This document shows positions 17,419 to 38,270 of a DNA stretch of 64,000 nucleotides, piece after piece; the first letter of the stretch is position 1, and each line of letters starts with the position of its first letter. Position numbers and translations under genes: made by a program. The DNA comes from Cymodocea nodosa (Eukaryota; Streptophyta; Magnoliopsida; Alismatales; Cymodoceaceae), in the NCBI GenBank assembly GCA_036874045.1, contig CM072340.1, positions 5,223,001-5,287,000 of the forward strand, read 5' to 3'. The notes below the pieces were generated by a model. It saw only the letters and a list, made by a program, of their open reading frames with translations. It had not been told where the DNA came from and searched no databases.

Positions 17419-17682
17419 AAAATCTCGAATAGGGAGAAATGTTTCAAATTAGTTTTCTCTGTTTATAGTTATGAAATTGGTTAAATGAAATATGGTATCG
17501 TTATATAATTGCATCTACAATTTAAGAGGAGAATTGAATTGTATATTGTAATTGAAACCTTGAATAAAATGATTTGATTAAAACAGTGTCTTGACTTGTT
17601 TTTATTTTTGAAGTTTCAATTATAATTGAAAATGTTGAAAAACACAATTCACCCCCCTATTGTGTAGCCATTTGATCTTATA

Positions 17683-18728
17683 GTACTACATAGTAGCCTT
17701 TATTGCCCTACTTTATTTAAGGATGCTTATGAATATTGTAAAAGTTGTACTCAATGTCAAAAAGTAGGAAGAATTACAAAGAGAAATAAGATGCCACTAA
17801 ATCCAATTCAAGAAGTAGAAATTTTTGATGTTAGGGGTATTGATTTCATGGGCCCATTTCCTAATTCACATGGTTACTTATATATTTTAATGGCTATAGA
17901 ATATGTAACTAAGTGGGTAGAAGCAATACCTACAAAAACTAATGATAACAAGGTTGTAGTAAAATTTATAAAGACAAATATTTTCTCTCGTTTTGGTACA
18001 TCTAGAGCCATCATAATTGATAAGGGAACCCATTTTTGTAATAGAAGTTTTGAATCACTATTAAAGAAATATGGAGTTTTACATAAATTGGCAACCCCAT
18101 ATCATCCTCAAACTAGTGGTCAAGTTGAAATTGCAAATAAGCAAATCAAAGGAATATTAGAAAAAGTTGTCAACCTCACTAGGAAGGATTGGGTAGAGAA
18201 ACTAAGTGATGCTCTATAGGCATATAGAACTGCTTATAAAAATATCCTTGGAACATCTCCTTATAAATTAGTTTATGGAAAATCTTGCCATCTACCAGTT
18301 GAGTTAGAACATAAAGCATTATGGGAAATTAGAAAACTCAATTTAGATGTAAAGGCAGTAGGCGATAAAAGAGGATTACAATTAGTGGAACTAGAAGAAT
18401 TAAGACAAGAGGCATATGACAATTCTAAGATTGCTAAAGAAAAGATGAAAGCATGGCATGGAAAAAGAGTTTTAAATAGAGTATTTAGTCTAAGACAAGA
18501 AGTATTATTGTATAATTCTCGATTGCATTCTTTTCCTAGGAAATTGAAGTCAAGATGGACTAGTCCTTAATTAAAACAGTGTATCCTTATGGAGCTATAG
18601 ATATTGAAGATCCACAAAATCATAAAGTTTTCAAGGTCAATGGTGAAAGGTTAAAACACTTTTTGAAATTAATAGATAAAAGGGAATTAGAAGTTATTGA
18701 TCTTAGGGATAATCAAGAAATGAATTAA
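17683..18728 (+). pseudogene. Element G: Athila-type Ty3/gypsy integrase, 3' part of pol
   Basis: From 17683 the frame reads the second half of an integrase zinc finger (CKSCTQCQKVGRITKRNKMP), then the core with GIDFMGPFPNSHGYLYIL, the DKGTHFCNRSFE region and YHPQTSGQVEIANKQIK, then the C-terminal part (HLPVELEHKALW, LRQEAYDNSKIAKEKMKAWH, VNGERLKHFLKL), ending at 18728. GIDFMGPFP plus SHG and the ending VNGxRLK are typical of Athila-lineage gypsy elements. The upstream part was separated by element F. Fossil with a couple of breaks. Oddly, an Athila gag follows it downstream instead of preceding it. Confidence 0.9.
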
Positions 18729-18913: not shown

Positions 18914-20281
18914 ATGTCAATTTGGACTAGGGATCAGCAAACCAATAGATTAATTCGTAGCCCAAGGAAAACTAATCCTAATCCTAATCCAATAATGGCA
19001 AAAAGACCTCTACATGTATCCATCAGAAGTATTTTCTATCCAAATTTAGTTGATGAACCTTCATGTATGGCACTTCCTGAATGTGCTAATGATAGATTTG
19101 AACTTAATTCCAATTACATAAATTAGTTACCTAAATTCCATGGTTTAGATAAGGAAGATGCCTACTGGTTTTTAAAAGAGTTTAATGAGGTATGCAACAT
19201 GATGAAAGTACCAAATATGTCAATAGATGCTATTAAGTTGAGGTATATACCTTTTGCCTTAAAAGATATATCAAAAAGATGGTTATATAGTTTGCCACCA
19301 AACTCCATTACAAGTTGGAATCAATTTTGTTCTGAGTTCTTAGAACATTACTATCCCATGCATGTGACCATTAAAAAGAAAAATGAAATTTTAAACTATA
19401 GATAGAAAGCTGGAGAACCTTTCTGGAAATATTTTGCAAGATTTAGAGATGCTTTAGCTTAATGTCCTCATCATGGGATTGAAAAAACTACTCAAATTCG
19501 AACTATATATGAAGGAATTGATTATCCAACAAAAACTTTATTAGAGTCACTATGCCATAGTGGATATTTGAATTTAGCTATAGATGAGGCATGGAAGTTC
19601 TTAGAAGATTTAGCAAAAAGAACTGCACAATGGGAAAGTTCAGGTGAAGTTTATAAAGAATCCAAGTCAAATGCTAATGGTATGTATGCTATAGAACCTT
19701 ATAAGGCCTTAGAAGCAAAATTAGTAGCAATGATGCATAAGATTGAAGAGTTGCATAGTAAACCTCATAAGAATGAAACTTCTAGTCCTAAATGTTTAGG
19801 ATGCTATGCTATTGGACATGTTATAGAGGAGTGTCCTATTTTAAATGGGAGTGAGGAAGTTAATGCTATCTTTTCAAATCAACGCAATAATCCAACTTTC
19901 AATCCTACTTACACTCCTACATGGAGAAATCATCCTAATTTTTCTTGGAAAAATCAAGGACAACAATCTAATATTACATCAGGAGCCCAACAAAATAATG
20001 AAAATATTTATAATCCTAAACATAATCAACTAGGCATTGATCTAAGTCAAATAGAAAACCAATTAGCTATAATAACACAAGGAATGAAATCCTTAATGAA
20101 AATGGGACCACAAGTCTCTACACATGACCAAGCAATTGGGTGTATGGAAGCACAACTTAGTCATCTAGCCAACTCATTAAATACTAGAAACAAAGGAAGT
20201 CTTCCTAGTCAACCAAACCAAAACCTCCATCAACAAGATACATCAGAAAATAGGGGGGTTGGGACTAATAAAATAACATAA
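18914..20281 (+). pseudogene. Element J gag, Athila type
   Basis: The N-terminal part carries LVDEPSCMALPECANDRFEL and KFHGLDKEDAYWFLKEFNEV. The retrotransposon gag domain follows from about 19199 (KLRYIPFALKDISKRWLYSL, FLEHYYP). The C-terminal part from 19568 has EAWKFLEDLAKRTAQWES and a zinc knuckle CLGCYAIGHVIEECP near 19793, then an N- and Q-rich tail. Both the LRYIPFALKD segment and the LAKRTAQWE segment are hallmarks of Athila gag. The same protein, much diverged, is on the minus strand in element I (28932 down, and 37925 down). Fossil with a few breaks. Confidence 0.9.
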
Positions 20282-20294
20282 AATAGAAAAGATA

Positions 20295-20377
20295 CAGTTT
20301 GTTGGTATCTGTTCTGTGAAATCATCTAGCTTACTTGTGAGCCACCAAAGGTGTAAGAGCTTAGGTTTCACACAAGT
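20295..20377 (+). other. Conserved noncoding block shared by elements J and I
   Basis: CAGTTTGTTGGTATCT, later CTTGTGAGCCAC and GAGCTTAGGTT, match the minus strand at 26555-26471 in element I. In J the block lies between gag and the F-box gene; in I it lies after the F-box gene. No open frame spans it. It may act in RNA processing or packaging of the element (speculation). Confidence 0.6.
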
Positions 20378-20619
20378 GTTAAAAATATTTTATTATGTTG
20401 CAATTATTTTATTTCAATGTTTGTTAGTTTTAGAATTAGTAGCAATTTGTTTTACTTTACTTGGTTTGTGTTGTTTAGTGTGTTTATGTTAAACATGTTA
20501 TTGGAAAAGATTATATATATAAAAAAAAAAACCAAACCAATTATATATTTAGTATTTTTAGATATATGTTGCTATTACATGATTAGGGGAGAGACACACA
20601 ACTTGGAATAAAGCCAAAC

Positions 20620-21750
20620 ATGGAAATACCTGAAGATGTGGTAAGAGAAATATTAGCGTATTTACTTGCAAAAGAGGTATGCAAAATGTGTTGTCTATCT
20701 AAATCTATTAATGCTTGGATTGGTAAGCATTTCTTTCAAAAACTTCAAGCTGCTAGACTATTCACTAAAGAATGTGGAGTTATTTCATGTAATCATTTTG
20801 AACCTGCAAGTTTTTCATGTGTAGATTTATATTCAGGTTTACCACCTCAATCCCTACAAGGAATTGTTAAAATATTGAATTGTTGTAATGGTTTAATCTT
20901 ATATCAAGTTAAGGGTATGGATAAATTGAAACCTAAATTATTCATTAGAAATCTTATTACTCTAGAGGAAATTCAAATAAATCCACCTAATGAGTTGAAA
21001 AAGTTTACTCTTGAGAATGTTGGAGCAATTCTAACTTTTAAGTCAAGAGCATTATTTAAACTTTTCTGTTGGGAGCCAACTGAAGAATGGGGACCTAATT
21101 TGTACTTGAATGTCTTTAGTTTTGAAAAACAATGCTAGAAACCTACTAGAGAAATAAATTTTGGTTTTAGACTAGTTAAGAATGAAAGTTATGCTATTAT
21201 AGATAACACCATATATCTAAATTCTATTTGCACTCTTGTTTGGGAAAGTAGCATTAACATCATTTCTCTAGATATAGAAAAGGAGACTATAGAAATCAAT
21301 TCCTTACCAAAACCAATAGGTTTAACGAGTGAATCATCATATGATGCAATAGATCTTTCAACATGGTCAGGTAATGAGTCAAATAGATCTAAATCATTAT
21401 GCATAATTTGTTGGTGGGATGTGACAAAAGTATTCAATATTTATATATTAAAAGATTGAAACAAATGGATATGGAATGATGAATACATTGAATTGCATCT
21501 TAATACATTATCACCATACATAGATTCTTCTATTTGGCGACCACATAATAGGACTTTAAGTGCTTTCAAGTTAATAAATGGAGACACTTTAACTTTTATT
21601 GCTGATGATGCTATCCATACATATAAGTTGAAAATGTGTGTAGGGAGTATCAAGGTAAAATTAATTCAAAGAAACATATTCCCTTATGAATCTAGAATAC
21701 TTTTTCCTTATTCTAATTCTCTTCAACCTTGTGTGAATGATTACTTATAA
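20620..21750 (+). pseudogene. F-box protein with F-box-associated (FBA) domain, carried by element J
   Basis: The frame opens at 20620 with an F-box: IPEDVVREILAYLLAK, then CCLSKSINAWIGKHFF (residues about 3-42), the usual L/I-P-x-D...CVSK...W pattern that binds SKP1 in SCF ubiquitin ligases. Around residues 85-125 it has an FBA-like start (ILNCCNGLILYQ, then LFIRNLITLEEIQI, like the NGL...NP-T motif of plant FBA proteins). Further remains reach 21750 (LSAFKLINGDTLTF, near 21559). It lies in sense with gag inside the Athila-like element. A sister copy is at 26690-27811 on the minus strand. Plant F-box proteins of this sort pick substrates for ubiquitination; the target here is unknown. Fossil with about two breaks. 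Confidence 0.82.
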
Positions 21751-21962
21751 AATGTGTATTTTTAGTTAGTTGTTTATGTATTCATAAGTCTTGTATGTTC
21801 TATTATCTTGTATGTTTAGTCTATTTCAAAAGATTGTAATAAAAAATAAAAATAAAAATTATTATGTTTCTATTGGTTTGCAATTTCATTTTAATCAAGT
21901 TTGTGGTAAATATATTTCTTTCTATATGATTGCACATTAAAGTTGATTTTTCTTAGGTAGCA

Positions 21963-22358
21963 ATGGGTGTATCTCCTAGAAAGAAAATCAAGAAAACAAC
22001 TCAATTGAGAAAGCCATTCATAAATCCTACATATCACAAATGGTGGGTGAATCAACTCAATGCTTGGAAAGAAGATGAAGACCAGCCAACTAATAAAGCA
22101 AAAGATGAAGATAATGGAAAAGCTTTGATAAATGTTCCAAAAATTGAAATAAGCAGTACATCTAAACCAATACTGGAAAAAGCCATTCTAACCAAAGAAA
22201 AACTAAAAGATGATAATTTTACAAGTTATTATGCACGATCATTTTGTGGAAAGGGAATGCATCTGACACATACTACCAATGCTATAAAATTTCCAGGTGA
22301 GGACTTCTTAACAATGTTACCTTATGCAATTGAAAATGAAGACTCAGATGAAGATTAA
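21963..22358 (+). CDS. Unidentified 131-residue ORF in element J
   Basis: Open from ATG at 21963 to a stop after 22358. The N-terminus is basic (SPRKKIKKTTQLRK), the middle mixed and lysine-rich, the C-terminus acidic (ENEDSDED). No signal peptide, membrane segment or domain that I recognise. It lies between the F-box gene and the 3' polypurine box, in the same sense, and has no counterpart in element I. It may be a real accessory ORF of the element or a chance frame; the charge pattern resembles small nucleic-acid-binding proteins (weak inference). Confidence 0.4.
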   Translation: MGVSPRKKIKKTTQLRKPFINPTYHKWWVNQLNAWKEDEDQPTNKAKDEDNGKALINVPKIEISSTSKPILEKAILTKEKLKDDNFTSYYARSFCGKGMHLTHTTNAIKFPGEDFLTMLPYAIENEDSDED

Positions 22359-22880
22359 GCTTTTCATGAAGTAACTTATATAAGTGTTATAATAATTTAT
22401 ATGTCAAAGCTTTGTTTTTGTTGAATGTTTTAAATGCTATATGTAAAGAATTTTATATATTTTCTTTCCATGCTATATAATTGTGTATGTTATTTATAGA
22501 CAAGTATGGGGGAAAGTCCACATCAATTATTGACATTTATTTATTTTTACCCATTCCTAGTCTATGTTTCTATTATGTATGTTATAGTATTGATACATTG
22601 GGGATAATGTATAAATTAAGTATGGGGGTTACTTATTGTTAATGTTGAAATGTTTATAGTAGTATGTTATATTTTGGAGGTATATTTAAAAATTTTCTTT
22701 TATTGATAAACTTCTCTAACAATTATTGTAGTTCAAGCCTTTAAGTGGACTCAATATGATAGAATCTATGGACCTCTAAGTTGAAGAATTGGGTATGCAA
22801 TTGATTCTAACTATATTTTATTTATGAGAAGGTATTACACTAATGCACAAAGACCCTTAATTGGGTATTACACTAATGCA
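22359..22880 (+). other. 3' noncoding end of element J with polypurine stretches
   Basis: Two tracts, AAGTATGGGGGAAAG at 22502-22516 and AAGTATGGGGGTT at 22618-22630. The second is preceded by CATTGGGGATAATG (from 22596), the Athila hallmark that element I carries on the minus strand near 26150-26190. Near 22832 and 22866 is a 16-base direct repeat (GGTATTACACTAATGC) close to the junction with the next LTR. No gene. Confidence 0.65.
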
Positions 22881-24841
22881 CTAGTTTGTGGAGTTACAGT
22901 TAACTCAACAGACTAAACTCGTGGACTTAAGTTAACTCTATGAGCCTATCTTTCTAGTTAAATACTATTATTCACAAAGGAATTCGGCCAACCATTGGGC
23001 GGTTCCACAGAATGTAAATAACATCAATTAAGCTCTTTCATGTTAGTTAATATTAGATTTATCATTCAGCAACACTAACATTCAGATATTTCAAACAGTA
23101 ACCATTAAAATCTTTAAGTATCTGGAACGAATCAATTTAAGTAAACAATAAAACTATTTTTCTATTTTCTAAGTCAAGCATATGTAAAACAATCACAATA
23201 CTGACAATGATAACATTAATCACAATACAACACTTAAATACTAAATGTAACATAGATAATTTGTTGTTTTTGGTATTTTTGTTTTGATATGTTCTTGAAG
23301 ATTAGCGAAAGGTGAAATGTAAAAATTTCTATCGACAATAAAAACTTTCGTCACTACATGCGACGCGATTACACCACTGAAAACTTAATCACTTACAATC
23401 TTGCTTCCTCTCCCAATAGAATCGCAAATCAAGAATTGTAAGATGATCTCCTCTTCAACATACTGGCATCAACCTGAAACCAAGGCTAGAAGCTTTATGA
23501 TCTCTTGAGATATGAGTCGGTGCTTGGTAAAAATGGCTTCCCTTCCCGCGACGCAATCACTCCTCACAGTGGTTGTTAAGCACTGTGTTTCGCTCAGAAT
23601 CGACCCAACATCAGGAAAGTATCCTCACATACCTCTAATGGTTGGTGATTTTGGTGGTGGTGTGGAGCTTCAGGGAACTTCCGACACTTCCTGTAGTTAG
23701 CGCAATTATCCACCTCTGCACACACACTTTCTTCGTCTTTTTTTTTCTCTTCTTTTATATTTCTTTCAGTAATAATTGCTTATGCTTAAATGATCAGTTG
23801 GATTTCCTTCATTCATATCAATGATGGTGATTTCTTCTTCATTCCACAAGTGAATTCCTATGTGATACGTGCAATCATGGTTTTCCTTCGAATTTCTAGT
23901 TTTTACAACTACTGCAGTGGCATATTAGAAAATAAATGGTCCGTGGAGTTACAGATACCTCAACAGACTTACTTCATTGATTTAACTATAAAACATGTGC
24001 AATAAAGAAATAACTTATAAGCTTACTAACATAACGCATTACTTTAATGTATATTCAAGTAACTTAACGCGTATAGTTATACTAACTTAACGAGTTATAC
24101 ATGTGCAACTCACATGACATAATAAAGCATTTAAATTCAACACGTGCATAAATCTAACTTAACAAGTTTAGATATATAACTTACGGTTTTTACTCAATAA
24201 CTCAACAAGTTCTCACGTGATCTTTTTATACCTTTAAACCTGTAACTCAATGAATTGGCACGTGATCTTTCAACAAAAAGAACACTAACTCAAAGAGTTG
24301 TTACTGTTCACCTGTACATGATATAAATATATGCAAATAAAATAGATCATGCTTAATACTATAAAACCACACTTAAATCAGGTTTTCAGATCACGACATG
24401 TGTCCTTAATAAGTTTTATAAATAAAAGGATATTTCGGATACCTACAAATCTAACTATCCAATGCCTAGATGCATTTCGGATAGTTAGCAAATAACTTAC
24501 CAAAAATTTACTTAAGTCATGCATTGATGTTTCAACATGTGTACTCTAGGAAATAATAAAATGTTCTTTAATCATTTAAAACATAACTATCTGGTACATG
24601 CAATATAACTCTCTAAAATGATAGAAAATTTAGATACATAAGAATTTCAAAGCCTATAACTTATTGATAGTTCAAAAATGTACTTAATTAACACTAATTC
24701 CTTGAAATTATGTAGATTCCTTCATTAAAGCATATAATAGTGTAATTATAACATAATGGCTTAATTCTCATATGATAAGCTAAATATTATGCAATTAACC
24801 ATCATTTAACCGTTAATATTATGCACCTTTCATTCTAAACA
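22880..24841 (-). repeat. Element I 3' LTR (Athila-like family, U5 end incomplete)
   Basis: On the minus strand it starts TGTTTAGAATGAAA at 24841, directly after the polypurine tract, and follows the solo LTR 28933-37555 in reverse along most of its length (for example the CCGCCCAATGGTTGGCC segment at 22993-23009 against 37103-37119). The last 300 or so bases of the solo LTR, with the Athila-like GTGGAATCGACCTG, have no match here. Palindromic TAACTCAACRGA motifs are frequent. Confidence 0.8.
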
Positions 24842-24858
24842 CTTCCCCCATACTTAAA
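24842..24858 (-). other. Polypurine tract of element I
   Basis: Minus strand TTTAAGTATGGGGGAAG, immediately before the LTR start TGTTTAG. The AAGT(T/A)TGGGGG pattern is typical of Athila-lineage elements. Confidence 0.8.
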
Positions 24859-24889
24859 TTTTGCTAGTCCCTTAGCAAACTAAGATCTA

Positions 24890-26060
24890 ACTAGTTGGTC
24901 TTTCTAAAGTTGCTAGAATTACTTCTTCAGAATACATAAATTAGATTACTATATAGATATTTTGTATTTTTTAGCACTCTAATTTAACATTGTTTTCTCC
25001 TCTTCAAACTACAAATATATTTAAAACATATGTAAATTACATACAAAATATATTAGCATCACGTAGGTGGTAATTATATTATCTTTTCTTTCTTCTTTTA
25101 AACATCTGTTATCCTGAATTTTCTAATATGATTTTCAGAATAAATTTCAACTACATATGAATCAAAACACAATCCAATTCAATATGATTAAAACAAGTAG
25201 AATAATGAATTGTATCTTAGATAAACAACTTCAAAAGTCTATTCTAGATTCATACTTTAGTAATCTTAGATAATAGAAAATATACTCGATTTAAAAGATA
25301 TCTGTATTTCACAAAACACTTTTATCTTTTCAGAACAGTATATGCATATTTGTACTTTAAAAGTTAATTTGAAAAGGTTGAATCATACAAGAGCTTTCTA
25401 GTGTACCTATGTATCGAGCTTTCAGTCAATAATCCCAAATCTAATCAGGATCTTAGGTTGCCATATTTAAAGAGTCATTTTTTAGGTCAACAATCCTTAC
25501 ATACCTATCTATTCAAGTACAAAAGAATCGTGATCAAACAAGTCAATAAACTCTCAAAGTTTTTCTCTTTTTTTTTCTTTTTTTCTTTTCAACACAGTAT
25601 ATATACCTATTTCATTAATACAGATGCAATAAAACACAAATCTCATATAATCCTACTTCTATTATTTACTAAAAATATGAATCCATATCAAAAAGCTCAT
25701 ACTTTTTCTATAGTTTAATAAGATTTACACATAAATCATTCTACAAGTTTAATCAATCAAATTAAATGTATCCTTAATCATATGTATTTCATTTAATCCA
25801 AAAATCAACATTTCAGCTTTTTTAGGATTTAGATAATTTACTGAGTTTTAGTTAAGCATTCTGATTTCTTTTTAAAATCGTGAAACTGTTAAATTCATAA
25901 AATTCAACAAAAACATAAGATACGATATCTAGATTTGTATAATAGTAAAATTTTTGTAGCATCTTATATAAGATTCTAAATATAACATTCAAGTAATTAC
26001 AATTCTTAAAAATTTGACAGTCTCAATTATCGAATGGTTACAAGAAATTTCGGTTAGTTA
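24890..26060 (-). repeat. Noncoding module of element I also found in copia elements B and C
   Basis: Clear similarity to 1-1330 and 46660-47990. The best stretch is 25381-25560 against 47331-47515, about four bases in five identical by eye, with GATCAGGA(T/C)CTTAGGTTGCCA shared. No open frame is conserved among the three copies. Here it lies between the Athila 3' box and the LTR; in the copia elements it lies between RNase H and the third ORF. Confidence 0.75.
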
Positions 26061-26149
26061 TAGCAAATTCATAAAAATTTTCAATTTCTATAGAATTTTT
26101 GCAGCACCCTAGTTCCTCTAGTTAACAAAATTACTTGGCTTTAATCTAA

Positions 26150-26190
26150 TTACCTCTCCCTCATACCTACATTATGTATTGTCCTCAATG
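26150..26190 (-). other. Athila-type 3' box
   Basis: Minus strand CATTGAGGACAATACATAAT followed by a purine-rich GGTATGAGGGAGAGG, equivalent to 22596-22630 in element J. Known Athila elements carry a similar GAGGACAATG...AAGTTTGGGGG box after their coding part. Confidence 0.65.
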
Positions 26191-26470
26191 TAAAAGATTT
26201 TACGGTAAATACAGTAATTATAGCAAACATGAATATTGTTTCGTTGACTTAACACCTAACTCAACGAACTTAATTCGTTGAGTTAATGAATAACTCTACG
26301 AACTAAGTTTAATTGTAAATTCAAGATAAGTAATCTATTACATACCTCGTTCTTTTGTATCTCCTTCAATATCTTTCGACTTTTGATTCTGAAGAACTTT
26401 TCATTCACAAATAAAGTAGAATATATAACAAAATAACAACTTAACAACAAAACATAAATTGTTAAATTAG
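26191..26470 (-). other. Noncoding part of element I with paired palindromes
   Basis: Two imperfect hairpins: arms 26240-26251 and 26257-26268 (TTCGTTGACTTA against TAACTCAACGAA), and arms 26274-26285 and 26291-26302 (TTCGTTGAGTTA against TAACTCTACGAA). Each pairs 11 of 12 bases. No coding potential. Confidence 0.7.
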
Positions 26471-26555
26471 TGTCTTATGTGGAACCTAAGCTCCTATGCC
26501 TTTAGTGGCTCACAAGCAAGGCAATTGGTTTCCCAGAATAGATACCAACAAACTG
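26471..26555 (-). other. Conserved noncoding block of element I
   Basis: Minus strand CAGTTTGTTGGTATCTAT, then CTTGTGAGCCAC and GGAGCTTAGGTTCCACA, matching 20295-20377 in J. Here it is downstream of the F-box gene, not upstream. Confidence 0.6.
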
Positions 26556-26689
26556 GATTGATATTTTGTTTTTTGTTTTTTTTTTTATAAAATAAAACAA
26601 AAACTAACAATTTTTCCTTTTTCTAAGAAAATAAATATAGATTACACACAACATTAAAACTACAAAATTACAATTTAAGAACATGATTG

Positions 26690-27811
26690 AAAATTAGTAA
26701 TAAATGGAATAAATGTGTCAGTCCATGCAAACTTTTTAGGTATAATTCTTCTTGCTATTAATTCTGTTTTAATGTAGTCTGCTTTCCTTTTTAACTTGTA
26801 AACTTGTAGTATGTTATCAATACTAAATATAAGTGTATTTCCATTAATGAAATGAAATGCAGAAAGGGATCCTTATTTGTTCCAAGATAGTGTAGCTGTT
26901 TCTATTTCTACATCTATTTCAATATATTCCTCTTACCATTTCCATTCATTTAGGTCTTTTATAATCCATATTTGAAATTTCATTAGTTCATCCCACCATC
27001 TTGTTAGACATAAAGTAGGATCATCATATTCATCATACCACATTCCTAATTGAATTTTATCATGTTTTGTAGACGGTGGTTTAGCTATATCACTCGGTAT
27101 AGGCAATATTTCTATAAAGTCATCATCATAACTATCTATGCTTACTATGTATAAATCAAATCTAAATGCAACTGATATATCTAACACTAAATATATATCC
27201 ATCAAGTATGACATGTATATTGTTAATTAACGTTTTCTGTCCTAGATATATCATAGTATTTTCAGTCCAAGATCTATTCAGAAAATTATACACACTTAAG
27301 CATAAATCCTCATCCCAATTTCCAGTTGGTCTCCAGTAATACAATTTTTTAGGAATCGTTGAATTTTTATTAGAAAATGTTAATGCAGACCCACAATTTT
27401 AGTTGGTACTTCAAATCTATTAGGTCTTCCTATATTTCATTCTTCTTTAGTGATAGGATTTCTAATCAAAATATCGGGTAATAGAATTGCATAGCTTGGT
27501 TTGGTTTTGTAAATAATTAATCCTTCATCTATCCCCATAATATGATCTATTCCTTCTAATGTATTGGGTGTAATTCCAACAGTTTCTTCCATATTCAGAT
27601 ATTCATAACTGATTGAACTACGATTAAATGACTTCCATAAAAATCCATCTCTAATCTTAGTCATTTTTGCAGCTTGTAGTCCATGAAAATATTTTTCTCT
27701 AACACAATCTTTAATTTCTTTTGACACACAACACAATCTACATAGATCTTTAGCTAGTAAGTTACTCAGTACTTCCCTTAGTGCATCAAGTGGCAATTTC
27801 ATCAATTCCAT
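26690..27811 (-). pseudogene. F-box protein with FBA domain, carried by element I
   Basis: The minus-strand frame opens at 27811. The F-box is at residues about 6-45: LPLDALREVLSNLLAK, then LCRLCCVSKEIKDCVREKYF. It is followed by HGLQAAKM, TPNTLEGI and DEGLIIYK, all paralleled in the J copy (KLQAARLF, PPQSLQGI, NGLILYQ), then LIRNPITKEE. Later remains toward 26690 include YWRPTGNWDEDLCLSVYNF and, near 26822-26872, LSAFHFINGNTLIF, matching LSAFKLINGDTLTF in J. The two copies are thus homologous along their whole length but strongly diverged. It lies in sense with the Athila gag upstream. Fossil with a few breaks. Confidence 0.8.
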
Positions 27812-27984
27812 CTATTGTGATTCTGTATAGCATAAACAAAAATTTAACAGAGACAAAATAATTGAGTTAAGTAATAACTCTACGATACTACTAACTAGAA
27901 TTAACTTACATTTTTTCTTTTTATATTTTTTTCTATTTACTATATTATACATAATTGTTTCAGTTATACTACTTCATTTAGCTT

Positions 27985-28932
27985 CCCTCCCATAGGAGGT
28001 ATCAATTTTATTAACAGTTCTATTGATAGGGTTAGGTACTACTTGCATTGGCAATCCTCCAATAGGTCTAACTTCTATTGATTCCTTCTATCTAGGGGGT
28101 ATATTTCTATTTATATTTTGATTTTGAATGATAGCATTTCCAAATACAAGATCTAGACGATTGTTTAATTATTGAATTATCTTTTCTAACTACTCTATTC
28201 TAGATCCTTGTTCAATTAATGCTTCATAACTTATATTCTTATCATTTTCTCCTCCTTGGAAATTGTTATTTCTCCAAGATAGGTTCAGGTGATTTCTCCA
28301 ATTAGGGTTATAAGAATTTCCAAAGTTATGTCTCTAGTTTCTAGCATAAATAATATCTAAATCATTAATGTTTGCATTCTTTTCTGCTAGTTTTTGATTT
28401 AATGATAACTCTGCTATTTTCTTTGTTAATTCAGTTAATTTAACTTCAAGCATAGTGCTTGAATCTATTTCATACATTCCCCTTGGCAATATTCTTTTAT
28501 CTATAATAGTTTCAGCTGAGTTTTCCCACTGTGTAGTTCTTTTTGCAAAGTGTTTTAAATATGCCCATGCTTCTTCACTACATAGTTTTAAAAATCCATT
28601 TTGACAAGTAGATTCTAATAAAGATTTCGTTGAAACATCTATGCCTTCATAAATTATACCTATTAATTGTGCTTTACTCATTGCATGATGTAGACATTGA
28701 GTTAGTAAATCTTTAAATCTTTCAAAATATTTCCAGAATGATTCTCCCTATTTTTAGCTACACATTAATATTTCCTTTTTCTTTTTAATCATTTGATGTG
28801 TTGGATAATATTTTTCCAGAAAAACAAAGCAAAATTCAATCCATGCAGAAATTGAATTAGGCAACAAAGTATATAACCATCTCTTAGTTGTGTCTTTTAA
28901 GCAAAAGGGATATATCTAAGTTTAATAACATC
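27985..28932 (-). pseudogene. Element I gag, central and C-terminal part
   Basis: Minus-strand Athila gag. From 28932 it reads the core corresponding to LRYIPFALKD in J, then EEAWAYLKHFAKRTTQWENS near 28570-28510, GMYEIDSSTMLEVKLTELTK, and an N/Q-rich tail with a WRNH motif like that of J, fading near 27985. It is interrupted at 28932 by the solo LTR and continues at 37556. Confidence 0.85.
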
Positions 28933-29329
28933 TGTTTAGAATGAAAAAGTGCATATTATTAACAGTTAAATGATGGTTAATTGCATAATATTTAGCTTAT
29001 CATATGAGAATTAAGCCATTATGTTATAATTGCACTGTTATAAGCTTTAATTAAAGAATCTACTTAATTTGGGGGAATTAATGTTAATTTAGTACATTTT
29101 TGAACTGTCGGTAAGTTGCAGGCTGTGAAATTCTTAAGTATCCAAATTTTTTGATATTTCGGACAATTATGTTTAACATACCGAACATATTTCGGACAGT
29201 TATGTTTAACATACCGAACATGTATCAGATAGTTATGTTTAAACTGCCGAACAGTTATGTTTTAAAAGAATAGTTTATTATTTCCTAAAGTACACATGTC
29301 ATGTTCTAGGTAAGTGACTTAAGTGGATT

Positions 29330-29357
29330 TTCGGTAAGTTATCTCTAACTATCCGAA
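29330..29357 (+). repeat. Imperfect palindrome in the Athila-like LTR
   Basis: TTCGGTAAGTTA and TAACTATCCGAA face each other across 4 bases; 11 of 12 pairs form. A second unit of the same kind is near 29468-29496 and a variant, GTCCGTTGAGTTA with TAACTCCACGGAC, at 29559-29588. Confidence 0.75.
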
Positions 29358-29797
29358 ATTGCAGTTGAGCATTGGATAGTTAGACCTGTAACTCTCTGAA
29401 ATGCTTCTTTTATTATTAAACTATTGTTGACACGTGTCAAGATCTGGTAGATTTACTTAAGTTATATATCGGTAAGTTATCTTTAACTATCCGAAATGCA
29501 TCTAAGCATCGGATAGTTAAATTTATGCATGTGTTTTATAGTTAAATTAATGAGGTAAGTCCGTTGAGTTATCTATAACTCCACGGACTATTTATTTTCT
29601 AATATGCCACTATAGTGGTTGCAAAAACAAGACAGTTGGAAGGAAAAACCACGATCGCACGTATCACGTAGGAATTCACTTGTTGAAGGGAGAAGAAAGC
29701 ATCGTCGTTGATATGAATGAAGGAAATCCAACCGACCATTCAAGCAAAAGCAGTTACCACTGAAGAAATATAAAAGAAAAGAAGAAAAAGAAGTAAA

Positions 29798-31514
29798 TGT
29801 TAGGAACGAATGGCTTCACCAGAGGGGGGGTGAATGGAGAACAAAGTGAATTTAAGCCTATTTTTCACTTTACTAACTAATTTGATTAATTAGTTTGCAT
29901 AAGTAATAATCAAATAAAAATACCATGCACAGCGGAAATAAAGGTAAGAAACACAAGAGAATTGTAGGTGGTTCACCAACTCGGCTAGTCCACCCCCAAG
30001 GGTCACTTGGGCTTCACTAAGTGTCTCAACACTTACACACTTGCTTTCAGGTCGAAGCAAGAACCAACCACACAAAAGTTTTCAAGTATAAACTCCAGAA
30101 AACCAACACTTAGAAGTTTTCAGGTATAAACTCCAGAAAACCAACCTCTTGAGTTTTTAGGTCGAAACTCAAACCAACAACTGAATGTAGCTTTCAGGTT
30201 GAAGCCACGAACCAAATGATCCTTCTTGAATCAAACTTTCAGCACATGGAGAGCTTTAAGAATCTTCGTGTAAATCCAGCTTTCAATCGATTCTTTGTTG
30301 AACTGAATTTGAGCTTTCTTCTATATCAATAATTGATCTGCAATGTCTATTATATCTCTGTATGTAATTGTATCTGTAATCTCACTTGTAAGCTCTATCG
30401 TATATCCGTTGTCTATATTTTGTATATATACTTGATATGTACAACGATCATATTTTCCTCCAACGGATGTATTCTACTATACTTGATTAGGCTCAAGTCC
30501 CAATACGGTAAGTTACCACTTAGAAAATCGTTTCAAGATATCTTACCGATTTTCCTATCCTTTCAGATAGTTAGCTATGCAACTCTCCAAAGAGTATCTG
30601 TAACTTACCGAAAGATCACTTAACCTTTACTGCCAGGTAGGATTCCAGAATATTTAAATGTGAGCTGTCATTCAATCGGATACTTATAACTGTAACTCAC
30701 CGAATAGTTATATTCTTGTTGGATAGTTTGTCTCTGTTAACTTTCCAATTACTTTAATTCAACATGTGCATAAAGGCTGACTTAAGTTTCGAATGGTTAT
30801 CCCTATAACTCACTGAAACGCTTTAGGATTTCGAATAGTTATCTTTCTAACTCTCCGAAAACTTATTTGCACTTCTTTCTGGAATTCTACACGTGGGAAA
30901 TTCAGTGACTTAAGTTTCGGATGGTTAAACTGTAACTCACCGAAACTCTTTCAAAATTTCGGATAGTTATATTTCCAACTCTCCGAAAAACCCATTTGAA
31001 CATCTGTTTGGAATTCTACACGTGGGAAATTCAATGACTTAAGTTCCGAAAAGTTATGCCTATAACTTACCAAAAAACTCGACTAGTTATCTAACTCTCC
31101 GAAAACCTTTAAGCTTTCGTTCTGTATTTTTGCACGTGGTTTAATGAATGACTTAACTTTCGGATAGTTATACCTGTAACTCTCCGAAAAGTCCTTTAAG
31201 CTTCCGGATAGTTAACTCCTTAACTATCCGATCATTCAATCTCCTTAATTGTCTGATTAAATAACTCTCTAACTGTAAAATCAAATAGTTATTCTTCTAA
31301 CTGTCCGATAGTATTTCTGCTGCTTTGAACTTGCTCTTTGGATACTTAGACCTGTAACCGTCCGATTTTCCTGTAGCTCTATAGCAGTATCTTCTGGAAC
31401 TTTCTCCATCGATTCGTCTACTTTCTGATCTTTTGTTGAGCTATCATATCTGTGAAATACAATTTGGTTTCCTAACATAGGTTTTTGCATTATCAAAATA
31501 CTAGGGTCCTAACA
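29798..31514 (-). repeat. Element H 3' LTR
   Basis: Pairs with 34625-36345. From about 30500 to 31360 it carries an array of hairpin units, for example 31158-31189 (TTTCGGATAGTTA, loop TACCTG, TAACTCTCCGAAA, one mismatch) and 31205-31230 (CGGATAGTTAA, loop CTCC, TTAACTATCCG, perfect). CACGTGG occurs near 30892, 31020 and 31133. Confidence 0.93.
31158..31230 (+). repeat. Two adjacent hairpin units in the element H LTR
   Basis: Unit one has 13-base arms with one mismatch and a 6-base loop; unit two has perfect 11-base arms and a 4-base loop. Both recur in the other LTR near 35988-36060. They are the clearest members of the array. Confidence 0.85.
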
Positions 31515-31528
31515 ATCTCCTCCTTTTT
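31515..31528 (-). other. Polypurine tract of element H
   Basis: Minus strand AAAAAGGAGGAGAT directly before the 3' LTR start TGTTAGGACC. Confidence 0.85.
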
Positions 31529-33289
31529 GATAATGACAAAATCCTTTACATTAAATTACATGTATTTCACTCCCTATTTCACTCCTTAGATTGTTGTTAT
31601 ACATTCAATCATACAGAAACTAAGTAAAGCAAAGATTTACAATGAATATAATACAATGAAGTTAAATTCTCGCCTTGTCTGTGTGCTGGGAATGCTCCCC
31701 CTACCCTCTATGTAATTTTCTATATTCTTCTCCCCCTTTTTGTCATTAGATAAAAGGAGTTCCATAATTTTCTTTTGTTGAATTTTCTTCTCCCCATTTT
31801 GTCATTAAATTTGTATCTGATGATATACCAATTTTCTGATCTCTGTATTCCCGTCAGATATCAAGTTGTGAAATGAATCAAATGCATCAATATCTTCAAA
31901 TACCAATTTTTGATTTTCCATCAAATGTAGACTGTTGATGTGTAGATCTCAATTGTTGATTTGCAGTCTATTTTCATCATTACAGTCTATTTTCTTCTTT
32001 TCCTTTGATTTGTGCTGCCATTCTTCTTTCTTATTTGAGCACAGTATCAATTGAAGTGTCAATTTCCTTAATCCTTGTCTGATGCCAGTTGTTGACATTC
32101 TATCATCTAAGAAGTCAATAATTGCTCTCCTGATTTGTGATATTTCTTCCTTTGTTTTCGTGTAATTACTACATCATCTATAAAAACTGAAAATAGTGAA
32201 ATGCCAATAGTTAATGTAGCAATTTATAAATATGCAATTAATATTTGTAATTTCTGCCACATGCTCTCCCCCTATCTGTATGGAGGTTCTCTGATTTATA
32301 ATAGCAAGCTATAGGCTCTCCCCCTATATGCATGCCCTCTTTAAACACTTTTATTTTGTACTGAAGTAACATTCTGAATTCTCTTCATATAGTAGGTTCT
32401 CCCCCTACTTATATGTTTTTCCTTGCAAACACATTTGTTGCACCTGTTCTGCAAAATGAATGTCATATATGATACGAATTGAACTAAATACCAATTGTTA
32501 AAAAAAATATCATAAAAGATTTTCAATCAATTTGCTTCTGACTCCAATTCGTTTATCTTCTCTTAGATCTTTGTTTCAAGTGGTTCTTCTATTTGCAAAG
32601 ATAATTTGAAGACTGTAATCTATCTACTGTAGATTTTGGTTGTCCTTTGATGAATCTGATTTCCCTGCATTTGTAGTCATTCAACTTGGCTCGTGCAAGC
32701 CTTGTTTCCTTTAAAGAACATGATTCAATCATTGATGCTACTTTTGATGCCAATTGTTAATTTTAGAATATCATAGCTGATTCTTAACTGATTATCAACT
32801 ATTTGGCTTCTAAAAAAAAAAAATTTTCTCTTCACAAGATTCTGCTTATTCTGATAACACTTGTTTCTAACTATTGCACATTTTTCTCTCCTTGAGCATC
32901 AAGATGTTAGGCACAATTTTCACTCAGTCTAAGTGGGCACTTTCTACCAATTTATGGTGCCTCTTGTAATACCAAAATTTTACTGTCATAATTGGTTTGG
33001 AGCTATAGATCAACTACTCCCCCTAAACCATATAATCCTGCAATTCAAATGGAAATAGATTTTGGTACCCATACTTTCTTGGGTCCATAAGTGTTAGTCC
33101 TGACAATATTTAGTTTATTGCCTTTTGGCAACCACATTGAACCAGATCTTCTTTTAATGGCAAACACTATTGTACCATCTCTATAAGATCAGATAACACC
33201 ACCACAGTAGGGTATTTCTTGTGGAGTAGCATACCCTAGGCCAAGTTTATTAGAACTATATCTTTGAGAACCAATGATTTGATCTAATC
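31529..33289 (-). other. Internal noncoding and decayed part of element H
   Basis: T- and C-rich on the plus strand, with recurring CTCCCCCTA (near 31701, 32269, 32320, 32400), that is, repeated purine-rich TAGGGGGAG on the element's own strand. Around 33060-33110 the minus strand encodes a short GPKKVWVP-like stretch, the segment that normally comes just before copia protease. No pol domain. Confidence 0.6.
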
Positions 33290-34572
33290 CTTTCTATCCA
33301 TTGGTAAATTTATGCATAATATTTTTCAGATCAGTGATTTCAGATTTCAATTTTTCATTTTCATTTATCAATTCATCATTATAGCATTTCCTATCTTCAA
33401 CATGTAGATTTTCAAGTTTAGTATGTGCTTCTTTTAAACATGCAGTTAAATGCTTAATTTCCTTTTTATACTTTTGCATTTAACATATAAACTGTCAACA
33501 GTAGACAAAAGAATATTTACATCTAGATTATCATTGTCTACATCAGAATCACTTTAAGATGAAGTGGAACATACCTCTTGTGCTATATAGCACACGTTTA
33601 CTGGTACCTCTTCATCTGAACTAGATGAGCTACTAGAAGAACTACTGTCATCCCAAGCAGCCTTCAATGCCTTTTTCTTTTTGTAGCTCCTCTTCTTCTT
33701 CTTCATTTCTTTTTCTTCTTCTTGTTGCAGTGGACAATCAGGTTGTATATGTCCCTACTACTTGCATTTAAAGCATATTGGTGCATTGCTTTTTGATGTG
33801 CTAGCATGATTCTTTTTCTTCATCCATTTTCTGAATTTTCTAGCTAATAGCACAACTTCATCATCATCCAAGCTTTGGAGTTCCTGTGTTGATGGAAAGG
33901 CTAGTTCTTTCTTTGTTTCAGTTTTCTTTTTACCACTACCTTCCTCAACTTTCCATTCCTTCATTTGAACTTCATGGGCCAACAGGTTGCCTGTTAGATC
34001 CTCTACTGAGTATTTGTTGAGGTCTTTGGAATCTTGTATCGATGTGGACTTTTGCTTCCATTCCACAGTTAAGCTTCTGAGGATTTTTTATACCTGTTCA
34101 TGGACAGAAAATTCCTTTCCCAAACCTCTTAAACCATTAATAATCTTAGTGAATCTTGAAAACATATCAGTCATAGTTTCATCATCAAGCATTTTAAATA
34201 ATTCAAGCTTTCTGAGTAAATGCTTATTTTAGTGTCTTTCACTTGGCTGGTTCCTTCAAAGGTTATTTGAAGAGTGTTCCAAGCCTCGTGAGCAGATTTA
34301 CAAGCTGAAACTTTATTATATTGTTCAATAGATAAGGCACATTAAATAATATTCAGCCCTCGAGCATCCATTTGGATGATTCTCTCATCCTCCTCAGTCC
34401 AGTCATCCTCATGACTAGGTGGAATAGGTGTTCCTAGAACAACCATTTTCCATAAACTCACATCTGAGCTTCTGAGGAAACATTCCATCCTGTTTTTCCA
34501 ATAATTATAATTAATACCGTCAAACAGGGGAGGACGATGGATGTTTTGACCCTCTCTATGAAAAGATGCCAT
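33290..34572 (-). pseudogene. Element H gag remains
   Basis: Minus-strand frame from 34572: MASFHREGQNIHRPPLFDGI and YWKNRMECFLRSSDVSLWKM, the N-terminus of a UBN2-type copia gag. Further on, DLNKYSVEDLTGNLLAHEVQ near 34030 and a zinc-knuckle start (ICFKCK) near 33775. From 33479 a lysine/glutamate-rich stretch (KEIKHLTACLKEAHTKLENL) predicts a coiled coil. It is diverged from the gag of families 1 and 2. Fossil with a few breaks. Confidence 0.85.
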
Positions 34573-34607
34573 GATCTCAAATGGTTAAATCTATAAAAAG
34601 AGATCAA

Positions 34608-34623
34608 CCTGCTCTGATACCAA
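34608..34623 (-). other. Primer-binding site of element H
   Basis: Minus strand TTGGTATCAGAGCAGG, one base after the LTR end CCTAACA; complement of the 3' end of initiator-Met tRNA. Confidence 0.88.
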
Positions 34624-34624
34624 C

Positions 34625-36345
34625 TGTTAGGAATGAATAGCTTCACTAGAGGAGGGGTGAATGGAGAACAGAGTGAATTTAAGCCTATTTTTCACTTTAC
34701 TAACTAATTTGATTAATCAGTTTGTATAAGTAATAATCAGATAAAAATACCATGCATAGTGGAAATAAAGGTAAGAAACACAAGAGAATTTTAGGTGGTT
34801 CACCAACTCGGCTAGTCCACCCCCAATGGTCACTTAGGCTTCACTAAGTGTCTCAATACTTACACACTTGCTTTCAGGTCGAAGCAAGAACCAACCACAC
34901 AGAAGTTTTCAGGTATAAACTCTAGAAAACCAACACTCAGAAGTTTTCAGGTATAAACTCCAGAAAACCAACAACTGAATGTAGCTTTTAGGTTGAAGCC
35001 ACGAACCAAATGATTCTTCTTGGATCAGACTTTTAGCACATGGAGAGCTTTAAGAATCTTCGTGTAAATCCAGCTTTCAATCGATTCTTTGTTGAACTGA
35101 ATTTGAGCTTTCTTCTATATTAGTAATTGATCTACTATGTCTACTATATCTCTATATGTAATTGTATCTATAATCTCACTTGTAAGCTTTTTCGTATATC
35201 CGTTGTCTGTATTTTGTATATATACTTGATATGTACAACGATCATATTTTCCTCCAACGGATGTATTCTACTGTACTTGATTAGGCTCAAGTCCCAATAC
35301 GGTAAGTTACCGTTTAAAAAATCGTTTCAAAATATCTTACCGATTTTCCTATCCTTTCGGATAGTTAGCTATGCAACTCTCCGAAGAGTATCTGTAACTT
35401 ACCGAAAGATCACTTAACCTTTAATGCTAGGTAGGATTCCAGAATATTTAAATGTGAGCTGTCATTCAATCGGATACTTATAACTGTAACTCACCGAATA
35501 GTTATATTCTTGTCGGATAGTTTGTCTCTGTTAACTTTCCGATTGCTTTAATTCAGCACGTGCATAAAGACTGACTTAAGTTTTGGATGGTTATCCCTGT
35601 AACTCTCCGAAACGCTTTAGGATTTTGGATAGTTATCTTTCTAACTCTTCGAAAACTTATTAGCACTTCTTTTTGGATTCTGCACGTGGGAAATTCAGTG
35701 ACTTAAGTTTCGGATGGTTAAACTGTAACTCACCGAAACTCTTTTGAAATTCCAGATAGTTATCTTTCTAACTCTCCGAAAAACTCATTTGAGCATCTGT
35801 CTAGAATTCTGCATGTGGGAAATTCAATGACTTAAGTTTCAGAAAGTTATGCTTGTAACTTACTGAAAAACTCGAATAGTTATCTAACTCTCTGAAAAGA
35901 AAACTCGGATAGTTATCTAACTCTCCGAAAACCTTTAAGCTTCCGTTCTATATTTCTGCACGTGGTTTAATGAATGACTTAACTTTCGGATAGTTATACC
36001 TGTAACTCTCCGAAAAGTTTTTTAAGCTTCCGGATAGTTAACTCCTTAACTATCCGATCATTTAATCCCCTTAACTGTTTGATTAAATAACTCTCCGAAG
36101 GCTTTGTAAAATCGGATAGTTATTCTTCTAACTGTCCGATAGTATTACTACTGCTTTGAACTTGCTCTTCGAATACTTAGACCTATAACCGTCCGATTTT
36201 CCTATAGCTCTATAGTAGTATCTTCTGAAACTTTCTCCATCTATTCGTCTGCTTTCTGATCTTTTGCTGAGCTATCATATCTGTGAAATACATTTTGGTT
36301 TCCTCACATAGGTTTTTGCATTATCAAAATACTAGGGTCCTAACA
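34625..36345 (-). repeat. Element H 5' LTR
   Basis: Same ends and same hairpin array as 29798-31514, with slightly different unit numbers (one extra unit near 35895-35930, one fewer near 34960). Confidence 0.93.
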
Positions 36346-37555
36346 GTAAAGTATGTGTGATTGATGGGTATGGCCAGTGTGTATAGAGGAGGAGCATCGA
36401 GCTTTCAGCAGACAGCATCGGCAATTCTCTAAAGTATCACACCAACCATTATGACCATAATCACCAACCATCAGAGGTCTGTGAGGATATTTTCCTGATG
36501 TCGGGTTGATTCCAAGCCAAACACAGTGCCTGACAACCACTATGAGGAGTGATCACGTCGCAGGAAGGGAAGCCATTTTCACCAAGTGTCGACTCATATC
36601 TCAAGAGATCATAAAGCTTCTAGCCTTGGCTTCGGGTTGATGCCTATATGCTGAAGAGGAGATCATCTTGCAATTCTGGACTCGCGATTCTATAGGGAGA
36701 GGAGACAAAATTGTAAGTGGTTTAATTTTCAGTGGTGTAATCGTGTCGTATGTAGTGATGGAAATATTTACTGTCGACTGAGATTACTTTACATTTCACC
36801 TTTCGCCCATTTCCATGTTCATATTAAAACAAAAATACCAAAAACAATTTATCTGTGTTTGTATTTTGTATTTGAGTGTTGTATTATTTGTGTTGTATTG
36901 TGATTAATGTTATCTTTATCAGTGTTGTGATTGTTTTATGTTTGTTTTAGTTTTACAGTTTACTAAAATTGGTTCGTTCAAAAGACTTAAAGATTTTAAT
37001 GGTTACTGTTTGAATTATCTGAATGTTAGTATTGCCTAATGATAAATCCAGTGTTTACTAACATTAAAGAGCTTAATGAATGTTATTTACAATCTGTGGA
37101 ACCGCCCAATGGTTGGCCGAATTCCTCTATAAATAGCAATATTAAATTGGAATGCAGGCTCGTGGAGTTAACTTAAGTCCACGAGGTTAGTCTGTTGAGT
37201 TAGCCATAACTCAACGAACTTTGTCCATTGAGTTAACTGTAATTCAACGGAGGGCTTATTGAATATATAAATTTGATTGTTAAAAGTGGAACAATTCTCA
37301 ATTCTTAAGCAATTCCCTGTGGAATCGACCTGTACTTGCACACTAATACAATAGACACTATGCATTTGTAGTTAAAATACAAATTGGAATTAATATCTAA
37401 TTTGTGTGAAAGGTTGTTTGTTTTCTTCTAAAAAAGAATAGGCATAAAGATAAATTAACTAAGGAAAAACAGAAGTTAACAAATCCAAGTTTTTCTAGTG
37501 CGTTGCTGGAGATCCAATACAAGTTTTCTGGTGTTGTGCTGGCCAAACATAAACA

Positions 37556-37925
37556 ACATCCATACTCATGTTCGGCATTTTCATTATTTTACAAACTTCG
37601 TTAAATTCTCTAAGGAAATAGTAGGCATCTTCTCTTTCTAATCCATGAAAGTGTGGCAATTGACTAATATAATTAGATTTCAATTCAAACCTATCTCCCT
37701 CAAAGTTTGGCAATCGAATACATGAAGGTTCATCAACTAATTCAGGATACAGAATTTCTCTTAATAGTTTTTCTACTAGAGCAGCCATGTCTTTGTTCTC
37801 TTTTAAAGAAAGGTTAGCTACACCCCTAAGGATTTCATTAAAGTCCAATTCAGAAAATATTTTAGTACGCCTCTATGTTGAATAATCCTGTATAGGTGTT
37901 CTTACTAATCGTTTAATGCTAGGAG
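37556..37925 (-). pseudogene. Element I gag, N-terminal part
   Basis: Minus-strand frame with LVDEPSCIRLPNFEGDRFEL and HFHGLEREDAYYFLREFNEV, then KMPNMSMDVV at the insertion boundary; the same three segments occur in J at 19035-19240. It opens near 37925 and is cut at 37556 by the solo LTR. Confidence 0.88.
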
Positions 37926-38270
37926 AATGAATCCATGTGCTCATAAACTCTTAACATAAAGTAAAATAGCAGAAGATTAATTACATACTAGTCTGATGCT
38001 TTGTTTGTAGTAAATAGTTGTTGACAGATGAAGTTGAATATGCTGCTTCTTCTTCCAGTTCCCTAACGAATTTTCTTTCCTTCCTCAAGTGCTGGTAACT
38101 CATAAATAATATTCTATTCTATATTTATAATGCACGTCCATAAAAAAAATGAATCTCGTTGCAAGAACGTGTCTTGTAACATGTAGTATGGTTCCTATTT
38201 TTATGGATACGTGTTCCACTTCTAATTTTTAAATTTCAGTAATCGCTAAACTGATGAATTTTCATTCATG
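37926..38270 (-). other. Probable leader or 5' LTR end of element I
   Basis: No gene. On the minus strand a TATAAATATAG stretch near 38115 lies about 190 bases before gag. I cannot place an LTR edge or primer site, so the 5' boundary of element I is uncertain. Confidence 0.4.

What the first reader, a model, noticed from the sequence alone, without database searches (positions are those of the whole stretch)
18914..27811. Athila-like retrotransposons that carry an F-box/FBA gene in place of pol, in two copies
Seen: two separate Athila-type gag genes (plus strand 18914-20281; minus strand 37925-37556 with 28932-27985) are each followed, in the same sense, by an F-box gene (20620-21750; 27811-26690), and then by an Athila-type 3' polypurine box. 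No pol lies between gag and that box in either copy. The two F-box proteins are homologous along their length (REILAYLLAKEVC / REVLSNLLAKDLC; LSAFKLINGDTLTF / LSAFHFINGNTLIF) but strongly diverged, so the association is old and has spread with the element. Known: F-box proteins are substrate receptors of SCF ubiquitin ligases, and plant retrotransposons can capture host genes. The poleroviral protein P0 shows that a virus can use an F-box to destroy ARGONAUTE. Inference: the element may have used an F-box protein to act on host silencing or on its own proteins.
Basis: partly seen in the sequence, partly recalled or inferred. Interest (0 to 1): 0.9.

Follow-up and report, generated by a model that had tools for sequence, protein, structure and literature searches.

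The report
Dead retrotransposons carrying an F-box gene
Two old, broken copies of a plant-type retrotransposon each carry, right after the capsid gene, the same extra gene for an F-box protein (a part of the cell's protein-disposal machinery), and the pattern of changes suggests the pair was once a working unit of a mobile element.

Summary
The core observation is real. Both gag genes (PF03732) are followed, in the same sense, by an ORF with a true F-box (PF00646 above Pfam's cut-off), then by a short box seen nowhere else in the window. Gag and F-box differ between copies to the same degree at silent sites, and both show coding-type constraint. So they most likely diverged together in living elements, not by chance adjacency. 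Corrections: an integrase ends 185 nt before the first gag, so "in place of pol" is unproven. No LTR pair or TSD of this family was found. Pfam shows no FBA domain. "Athila" rests on recalled motifs. Both F-box genes are broken. A conserved 81-bp non-coding block lies before the F-box in one copy and after it in the other. Best reading: an old Ty3/gypsy lineage with an F-box additional ORF, probably a receptor for the host SCF ligase; its target is unknown and silencing suppression is speculation. My searches found no F-box ORF shared by copies of a plant LTR retrotransposon; one F-box "LTR-gene" is printed for Thlaspi arvense. The host genome could not be searched, so copy number and host relatives stay open.

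The parts
17668..18728 (+). Ty3/gypsy integrase, broken (in-frame stop, frameshift), ending 185 nt before the copy-1 gag
   Evidence: rve E 3.8e-15; 4595 database relatives; of the 23 among the 120 listed whose name gives an organism, 21 are plants; gap
18914..20281 (+). gag, copy 1, with zinc-knuckle-like stretch (by eye); 3 in-frame stops in the 457 codons of 18908-20278
   Evidence: PF03732 E 1.2e-8; stops
20296..20376 (+). 81-bp conserved non-coding block, copy 1 (between gag and F-box)
   Evidence: 82.7% identical to 26554-26474
20620..21750 (+). F-box gene, copy 1; 376 codons, 2 in-frame stops
   Evidence: PF00646 E 8.3e-6 on 20620-21135; stops
21963..22358 (+). open ORF of 131 codons, no known domain, after the F-box in copy 1 only
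22595..22628 (+). 3' box of copy 1: ACATTGGGGATAAT then AAGTATGGGGG (a further AAGTATGGGGG at 22502-22512)
37556..37944 (-). gag, copy 2, 5' part
   Evidence: tblastn 45% and 69% to copy 1; start codon and junction
27974..28932 (-). gag, copy 2, 3' part, broken
   Evidence: PF03732 E 9e-6 and 1.4e-4; tblastn 67% and 36%
28933..37555 (-). solo-LTR-like insert (TGTTTA...TAAACA) in the copy-2 gag, TSD GATGT, itself holding a nested element
   Evidence: junctions; matches to 22883-24841
29795..36345 (.). nested LTR element inside that insert (repeats 29795-31514 and 34622-36345, 90% alike)
26681..27811 (-). F-box gene, copy 2; stops and frameshifts
   Evidence: PF00646 E 1.3e-9 on 27440-27811; tblastn to copy 1
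26474..26554 (-). 81-bp conserved non-coding block, copy 2 (after the F-box)
26158..26191 (-). 3' box of copy 2: ACATTGAGGACAAT ... GTATGAGGG
22876..25802 (-). 3' end of another element (piece 25802-24957, AAGTATGGGGG at 24855-24845, LTR 24842-22876) lying against copy 2; probably not this family's LTR
   Evidence: 78% matches to stretches after the copia-like pol genes and 71-73% matches to the window's copia-like LTRs

Best explanation
The two loci are decayed copies of one old Ty3/gypsy-type plant retrotransposon lineage that carried an F-box gene as an additional sense ORF downstream of gag. Shown: gag, F-box and a 3' box in the same order in two copies; homology of both genes; equal silent divergence; codon-type constraint. 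Inferred: the F-box protein was made from element RNA (splice-like sites, by eye, precede it in copy 2), bound host SKP1 through its F-box, and its faster-changing C-terminal part chose a substrate for ubiquitination by the host SCF ligase. I think the substrate was most likely a host factor that limits the element, or next the element's own Gag or Pol. Whether pol was lost or sat elsewhere in the element is open.
For: PF00646 above cut-off in both copies. Homology along the F-box protein in separate pieces. DNA identity by codon position: F-box 0.645/0.740/0.585, p=8.8e-5; gag 0.781/0.760/0.505, p=2.7e-5, and 0.719/0.755/0.635, p=0.004. pS 0.64 for F-box and 0.67 for gag; pN/pS bootstrap 0.54-0.76 and 0.35-0.54. 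The F-box part is better kept (21 of 45 residues) than the next part (24 of 71). ACATTG(A/G)GGA(C/T)AAT only after the two F-box genes.
Against: Only two copies, both broken, in one window. No LTR pair or TSD of the family; PBS not found but not searched systematically. An integrase before gag in copy 1, none found before gag in copy 2. The 81-bp block changes place relative to the F-box. Silent sites are near saturation, so equal age is coarse; constraint on the F-box is weaker than on gag (pN 0.42 against 0.29). No genome-wide copies could be sought. No functional evidence for any target.
Confidence: 0.62

Rival explanations
1. One chance neighbourhood of a gag remnant and a host F-box gene was copied by segmental (inverted) duplication and both copies then decayed.
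For: Both copies lie in one 64-kb window, in opposite orientation.
Against: A dead gag would lose codon-position bias, yet gag (and the F-box) diverged with strong bias. Sequence 5' of gag shows no similarity beyond shuffles and the 81-bp block has moved.
Confidence: 0.1
2. The full element was gag-pol with a second cassette after pol: integrase, then a (second) gag and the F-box as 3' additional ORFs. The F-box did not replace pol.
For: In copy 1 the integrase frame ends and gag begins 185 nt later on the same strand, with no LTR seen between and comparable decay: 1 stop in 300 codons plus a frameshift, 3 in 457, 2 in 376.
Against: No second Ty3/gypsy integrase in the window. Sequence 5' of gag shows no similarity between the copies. 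gag after pol would be unusual (recalled). A deletion or template switch joining two elements also explains copy 1.
Confidence: 0.18
3. Two independent captures or insertions of related host F-box genes next to gag.
For: The 81-bp block is on different sides of the F-box. Plant F-box genes are very many (recalled), and an F-box gene taken up as an 'LTR-gene' is printed for Thlaspi arvense (passages of PMC8764390).
Against: Same sense, close after gag in both (338 and 162 nt), silent divergence equal to that of gag, the same stretch LLAK-x-x-C-x-x-CC-x-SK in both, and no relative of the copy-1 F-box piece at E<=0.01 among 118 candidates in a database that holds plant proteins; that search needs shared 5-residue words.
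Confidence: 0.08

Closest known systems
Plant Ty3/gypsy elements with sense additional ORFs between pol and 3' LTR (Athila env-like, Bagy2; review PMC7264820, part 1 of 3 of the text read)
   Same: Extra sense ORF in the 3' half, present in more than one copy, with coding constraint
   Different: Here the ORF is an F-box protein and no pol was found between it and gag. 'F-box' occurs 0 times in the review's main text.
Phalaenopsis Gypsy elements with an AlkB m6A demethylase ORF (PMC9289625; abstract and section 'Screen for Non-canonical Domains' read)
   Same: A host-type regulatory domain fixed as an extra ORF in a Gypsy lineage, which its authors link to host surveillance
   Different: Different domain, tested in vitro there. 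That screen of 121 angiosperm genomes was anchored on reverse transcriptase, so copies without pol would be missed. It found 15 extra domains and the section names 9, none an F-box; 'F-box' occurs 0 times in the main text.
F-box 'LTR-gene' TaChr6G576 of Thlaspi arvense (passages of PMC8764390)
   Same: An F-box gene tied to an LTR retrotransposon of a plant
   Different: As I read the passages, a single host-gene copy later tandemly duplicated, not an ORF shared by copies of an element family
Non-autonomous gag-only elements (TR-GAG; seen in a search listing only)
   Same: gag kept, pol absent from the visible unit
   Different: Terminal repeats not found here; carries an F-box gene
Polerovirus P0 and nanovirus Clink (passages of PMC3588083)
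   Same: A parasite's F-box protein that engages host SKP1
   Different: Plant viruses of other kinds, not retroelements; homology was not tested here

Membership tests
Ty3/gypsy LTR retrotransposon | Gag of the Retrotrans_gag family | tested here: met
   PF03732 above cut-off in both copies. Pfam's family is not special to Ty3/gypsy; the integrase relatives point the same way.
Ty3/gypsy LTR retrotransposon | pol (protease, RT, RNase H, integrase) | tested here: inconclusive
   Integrase only, 5' of the copy-1 gag. No other Ty3/gypsy pol match in the segments scanned and no second such integrase by tblastn. Not all segments were scanned.
Ty3/gypsy LTR retrotransposon | Paired LTRs and TSD | tested here: not met
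   None found for these two copies in a self-comparison of the window; copies are decayed and cut
Ty3/gypsy LTR retrotransposon | Primer binding site | not tested
   Looked at by eye only
Athila lineage | Place in RT/RH/INT tree | not tested
   RT and RH absent; integrase hits bear no lineage labels. The CHLPVELEH stretch and the AAGTxTGGGGG box as Athila marks are recalled.
Athila lineage | ATHILA ORF-1 (PF03078) or PF20167 in the extra ORF (PF03078 in 16% of Athila elements, passage of PMC6317226) | tested here: not met
   No such match in the 131-aa ORF or the other segments scanned. Most Athila elements lack PF03078 too.
F-box protein | F-box domain at the N-terminus | tested here: met
   PF00646 above curated cut-off in both copies
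F-box protein | SKP1 binding and SCF assembly | not testable with these tools
   Needs protein; both copies are broken
F-box/FBA subfamily | FBA domain in the C-terminal part | tested here: not met
   No FBA family at E<=1 in any piece. The fold of residues 1-172 shows two helices, then four strands, but mean pLDDT 37 carries no weight.
TR-GAG | Terminal repeats around a gag-only interior | tested here: not met
   No terminal repeats found for these copies

The most novel reading that the evidence does not exclude
A Ty3/gypsy lineage of plants took up an F-box gene as a counter-defence: its protein redirected the host SCF ligase to destroy a silencing factor, as polerovirus P0 does to ARGONAUTE1, by an independent origin.
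Probability: 0.12. Interest if true: 0.88.

Novelty: new variant of a known kind. Interest (0 to 1): 0.54.

Why it matters
The origin and function of most extra ORFs of plant retrotransposons are unknown. One with an F-box names a concrete host pathway (SKP1-Cullin-ubiquitin) that an element may have used, and it gives a direct test of whether retrotransposons, like some plant viruses, turn host protein degradation to their own use. It also suggests that surveys anchored on reverse transcriptase can miss extra ORFs in pol-less copies.

Tried and rejected
Protein database: copy-1 F-box residues 1-172 gave 0 hits at E<=0.01 of 118 candidates; gag residues 74-165 gave 0 of 8; the integrase piece gave 4595 of 4623 candidates at E<=0.001, so the base holds plant proteins. 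Copy 2's F-box was not searched there (cap reached). IMG/VR scans with F-box, gag, the 81-bp core, the F-box pair and an integrase alignment returned no locus. In one search one stretch matched a peptide pattern and passed tblastn but no locus was returned; I cannot interpret it. Phage records: 7 matches of E 2 to 7 only. PDB: one chance-level match (E 0.66) for copy 1, none for copy 2.

RNA reading of the 81-bp block: no Rfam match and no tRNA in the window, weak folds (z -0.73 and -1.09); a two-sequence fold shows 3 of 24 pairs changed on both sides, too little to count. Three-frame translation gave no coding case by eye.

The LTR at 24842-22876 as copy 2's own 3' LTR: dropped, because it and the 800 bp before it match the window's copia-like elements; those are called copia by reading their ORFs and, for one gag, by Pfam (PF14223). 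Spacer between gag and F-box: above all 60 shuffles (51 against 44), but not; left open.

Structure of the F-box piece: pLDDT 37, so no fold search was made. Tree against host F-box genes and selection across many copies: not possible without the genome.

I also withdrew a guess that the element at 57-62 kb is the youngest and that the GTTGAGTTA sites are often inverted.
Full report
What is there. The window is AT-rich (31% GC) and full of LTR elements: several that read as Ty1/copia (ORFs; one gag matches PF14223) with their repeats, and between about 17.7 and 38 kb two loci with Ty3/gypsy-type genes. Of the 23 integrase relatives among the 120 listed whose name gives an organism, 21 are plants (Vitis, Tanacetum, Malus, Prunus, Helianthus, Arachis, Xanthoceras) and two bear bacterial names. 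The source is most likely a plant; the species is not known to me.

Copy 1 (plus strand). An integrase piece (17668-18216, rve E 3.8e-15) runs on, with a stop and a frameshift, to a stop at 18728. After 185 nt gag begins at 18914 (PF03732 E 1.2e-8 on 19127-19402) and ends at 20281; 18908-20278 holds 3 in-frame stops in 457 codons. The F-box gene runs from 20620 to 21750 in one frame with 2 stops in 376 codons; its first piece matches PF00646 (E 8.3e-6, 26 bits against a cut-off of 20.5). An open ORF of 131 codons without known domain follows (21963-22358). Then come ACATTGGGGATAAT and AAGTATGGGGG (22595-22628).

Copy 2 (minus strand). gag starts at 37944 by reading the sequence, is cut at 37556, and goes on at 28932. 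The insert has ends TGTTTA...TAAACA and a 5-bp duplication GATGT, the marks of a solo LTR. A further element with 90% identical repeats is nested in it. The gag stop is at 27976-27974. The F-box gene starts at 27811 or 27802 and runs to about 26681, broken by stops and frameshifts; its first piece matches PF00646 with E 1.3e-9 (38 bits). The 3' box is at 26191-26158. The LTR at 24842-22876 and the 800 bp before it resemble the copia-like elements of the window, so I do not give it to this family.

Is the pair more than chance? The F-box proteins match in separate pieces (37%, 30%, 35%; E 3e-21, 6e-9, 1e-12 within the window). The main gag pieces match at 36-69% (a 13-residue stretch reads 85%). 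A DNA alignment made without reference to protein shows codon-position bias in both genes: F-box 220/341, 259/350, 199/340 identical at positions 1, 2, 3; gag 5' part 75/96, 73/96, 49/97; gag 3' part 215/299, 228/302, 191/301. Third-position identity is 0.585 for the F-box and 240/398 = 0.603 for gag. Nei-Gojobori counts on protein-aligned codons (290 for the F-box, 240 for gag, stop-containing pairs dropped) give pS 0.64 and 0.67, pN 0.42 and 0.29. Protein-based alignment favours low pN, which is why I rely. Both genes thus diverged while under coding constraint and to about the same silent depth, near saturation. A host gene next to a dead gag, duplicated once, would not give this for gag.

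Against a simple story. (a) The integrase stands 5' of gag in copy 1 only. (b) The regions 5' of gag show no similarity beyond shuffles (score 59 against a shuffle maximum of 64). (c) An 81-bp block, 82.7% identical and so better kept than either gene, lies between gag and F-box in copy 1 but after the F-box in copy 2. Its 18-bp core with up to 3 mismatches is found at these two places only (0.02 expected). Its role is unknown; I found no structure or coding case for it. (d) No LTR pair was found for these copies. (e) AAGTATGGGGG also precedes a copia-like LTR, so that box alone does not mark the family. Recombination between related elements, or template switching, is a likely part of the history.

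How it may have worked. The F-box part is better kept (21 of 45 residues) than the next part (24 of 71), as expected of a fixed SKP1-binding end and a variable substrate end. In copy 2 a strong splice-like donor (ATGTAAGT) follows gag and an acceptor-like TACAG precedes the F-box (by eye, sequence), so a spliced message is possible; this is inference. I take the protein to have been a substrate receptor of the host SCF ligase. A host restriction factor is my first guess for the substrate and the element's own Gag the second; neither has direct evidence. Viral precedents are P0 and Clink (passages of PMC3588083).

What is in print. Searches: 'Athila, F-box, retrotransposon' (18 papers), 'extra open reading frames' with Athila, gag, F-box (12 papers), 'F-box, LTR retrotransposon, captured, non-autonomous, gag' (1 paper), 'F-box domain, additional ORF, gypsy' (25 of 77 listed), 'transposon-encoded, F-box protein' and others (none), 'LTR retrotransposon, captured genes, F-box' (15 of 123 listed). 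I saw listings with titles and abstract openings. None of those describes an F-box ORF shared by copies of a plant LTR retrotransposon. [quoted passage not shown] 'F-box' occurs 0 times in the main texts of PMC3726574, PMC13317346, PMC9289625 and PMC7264820 and 0 times for PMC6317226 in the listing; in PMC13310191 it is in a reference on S-locus genes only. The other papers were not opened. Supplements were not open to me, and the 2011-12 survey of extra ORFs (Steinbauerova et al.) is not held, so a mention there is possible. The screen of 121 angiosperm genomes in PMC9289625 used reverse transcriptase as its anchor and names 9 of 15 extra domains in the section read; it would miss copies like these.

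Verdict. A real, old association of gag and F-box in two dead copies of what is most likely one retroelement lineage; a new kind of extra ORF in a known kind of element, as far as these searches go. Function against host silencing is possible but untested. The host genome would settle most of it and could not be reached.

Noticed in passing
20296-20376 (+) and 26554-26474 (-): 81-bp non-coding block, 83% identical, better conserved than gag or F-box, on different sides of the F-box in the two copies; no Rfam match or tRNA.
   Followed up: partly
window-wide, e.g. 13385-16845, 26257-26285, 37194-37215, 38313-38454, 42882-43682, 52535-54765: GTTGAGTTA/TAACTCAAC occurs 35 times against 0.8 expected from base composition, in LTR-like repeats and in spacers of apparently different elements; some in tandem units of about 32 bp, only 4 of 35 with an exact inverted partner close by. 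Copies of one LTR family account for part of the count.
   Followed up: partly
21963-22358 (+): Open 131-codon ORF after the copy-1 F-box, basic start and acidic end, no known domain, acceptor-like TTTTTCTTAG just before it; no counterpart in copy 2.
   Followed up: partly
57040-62275: Element that reads as Ty1/copia, with 95% identical 300-bp stretches at both ends (57040-57339 and 61976-62275) and four ORFs of 158-210 codons between.
   Followed up: no
38955-40798 (-), 44820-45896 (-): Open frames of 101-201 codons without a Pfam match above cut-off, in stretches near the copia-like elements; possibly their extra ORFs.
   Followed up: partly
IMG/VR scan: One stretch matched the F-box query by pattern and tblastn but was not returned as a locus; unexplained.
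   Followed up: no
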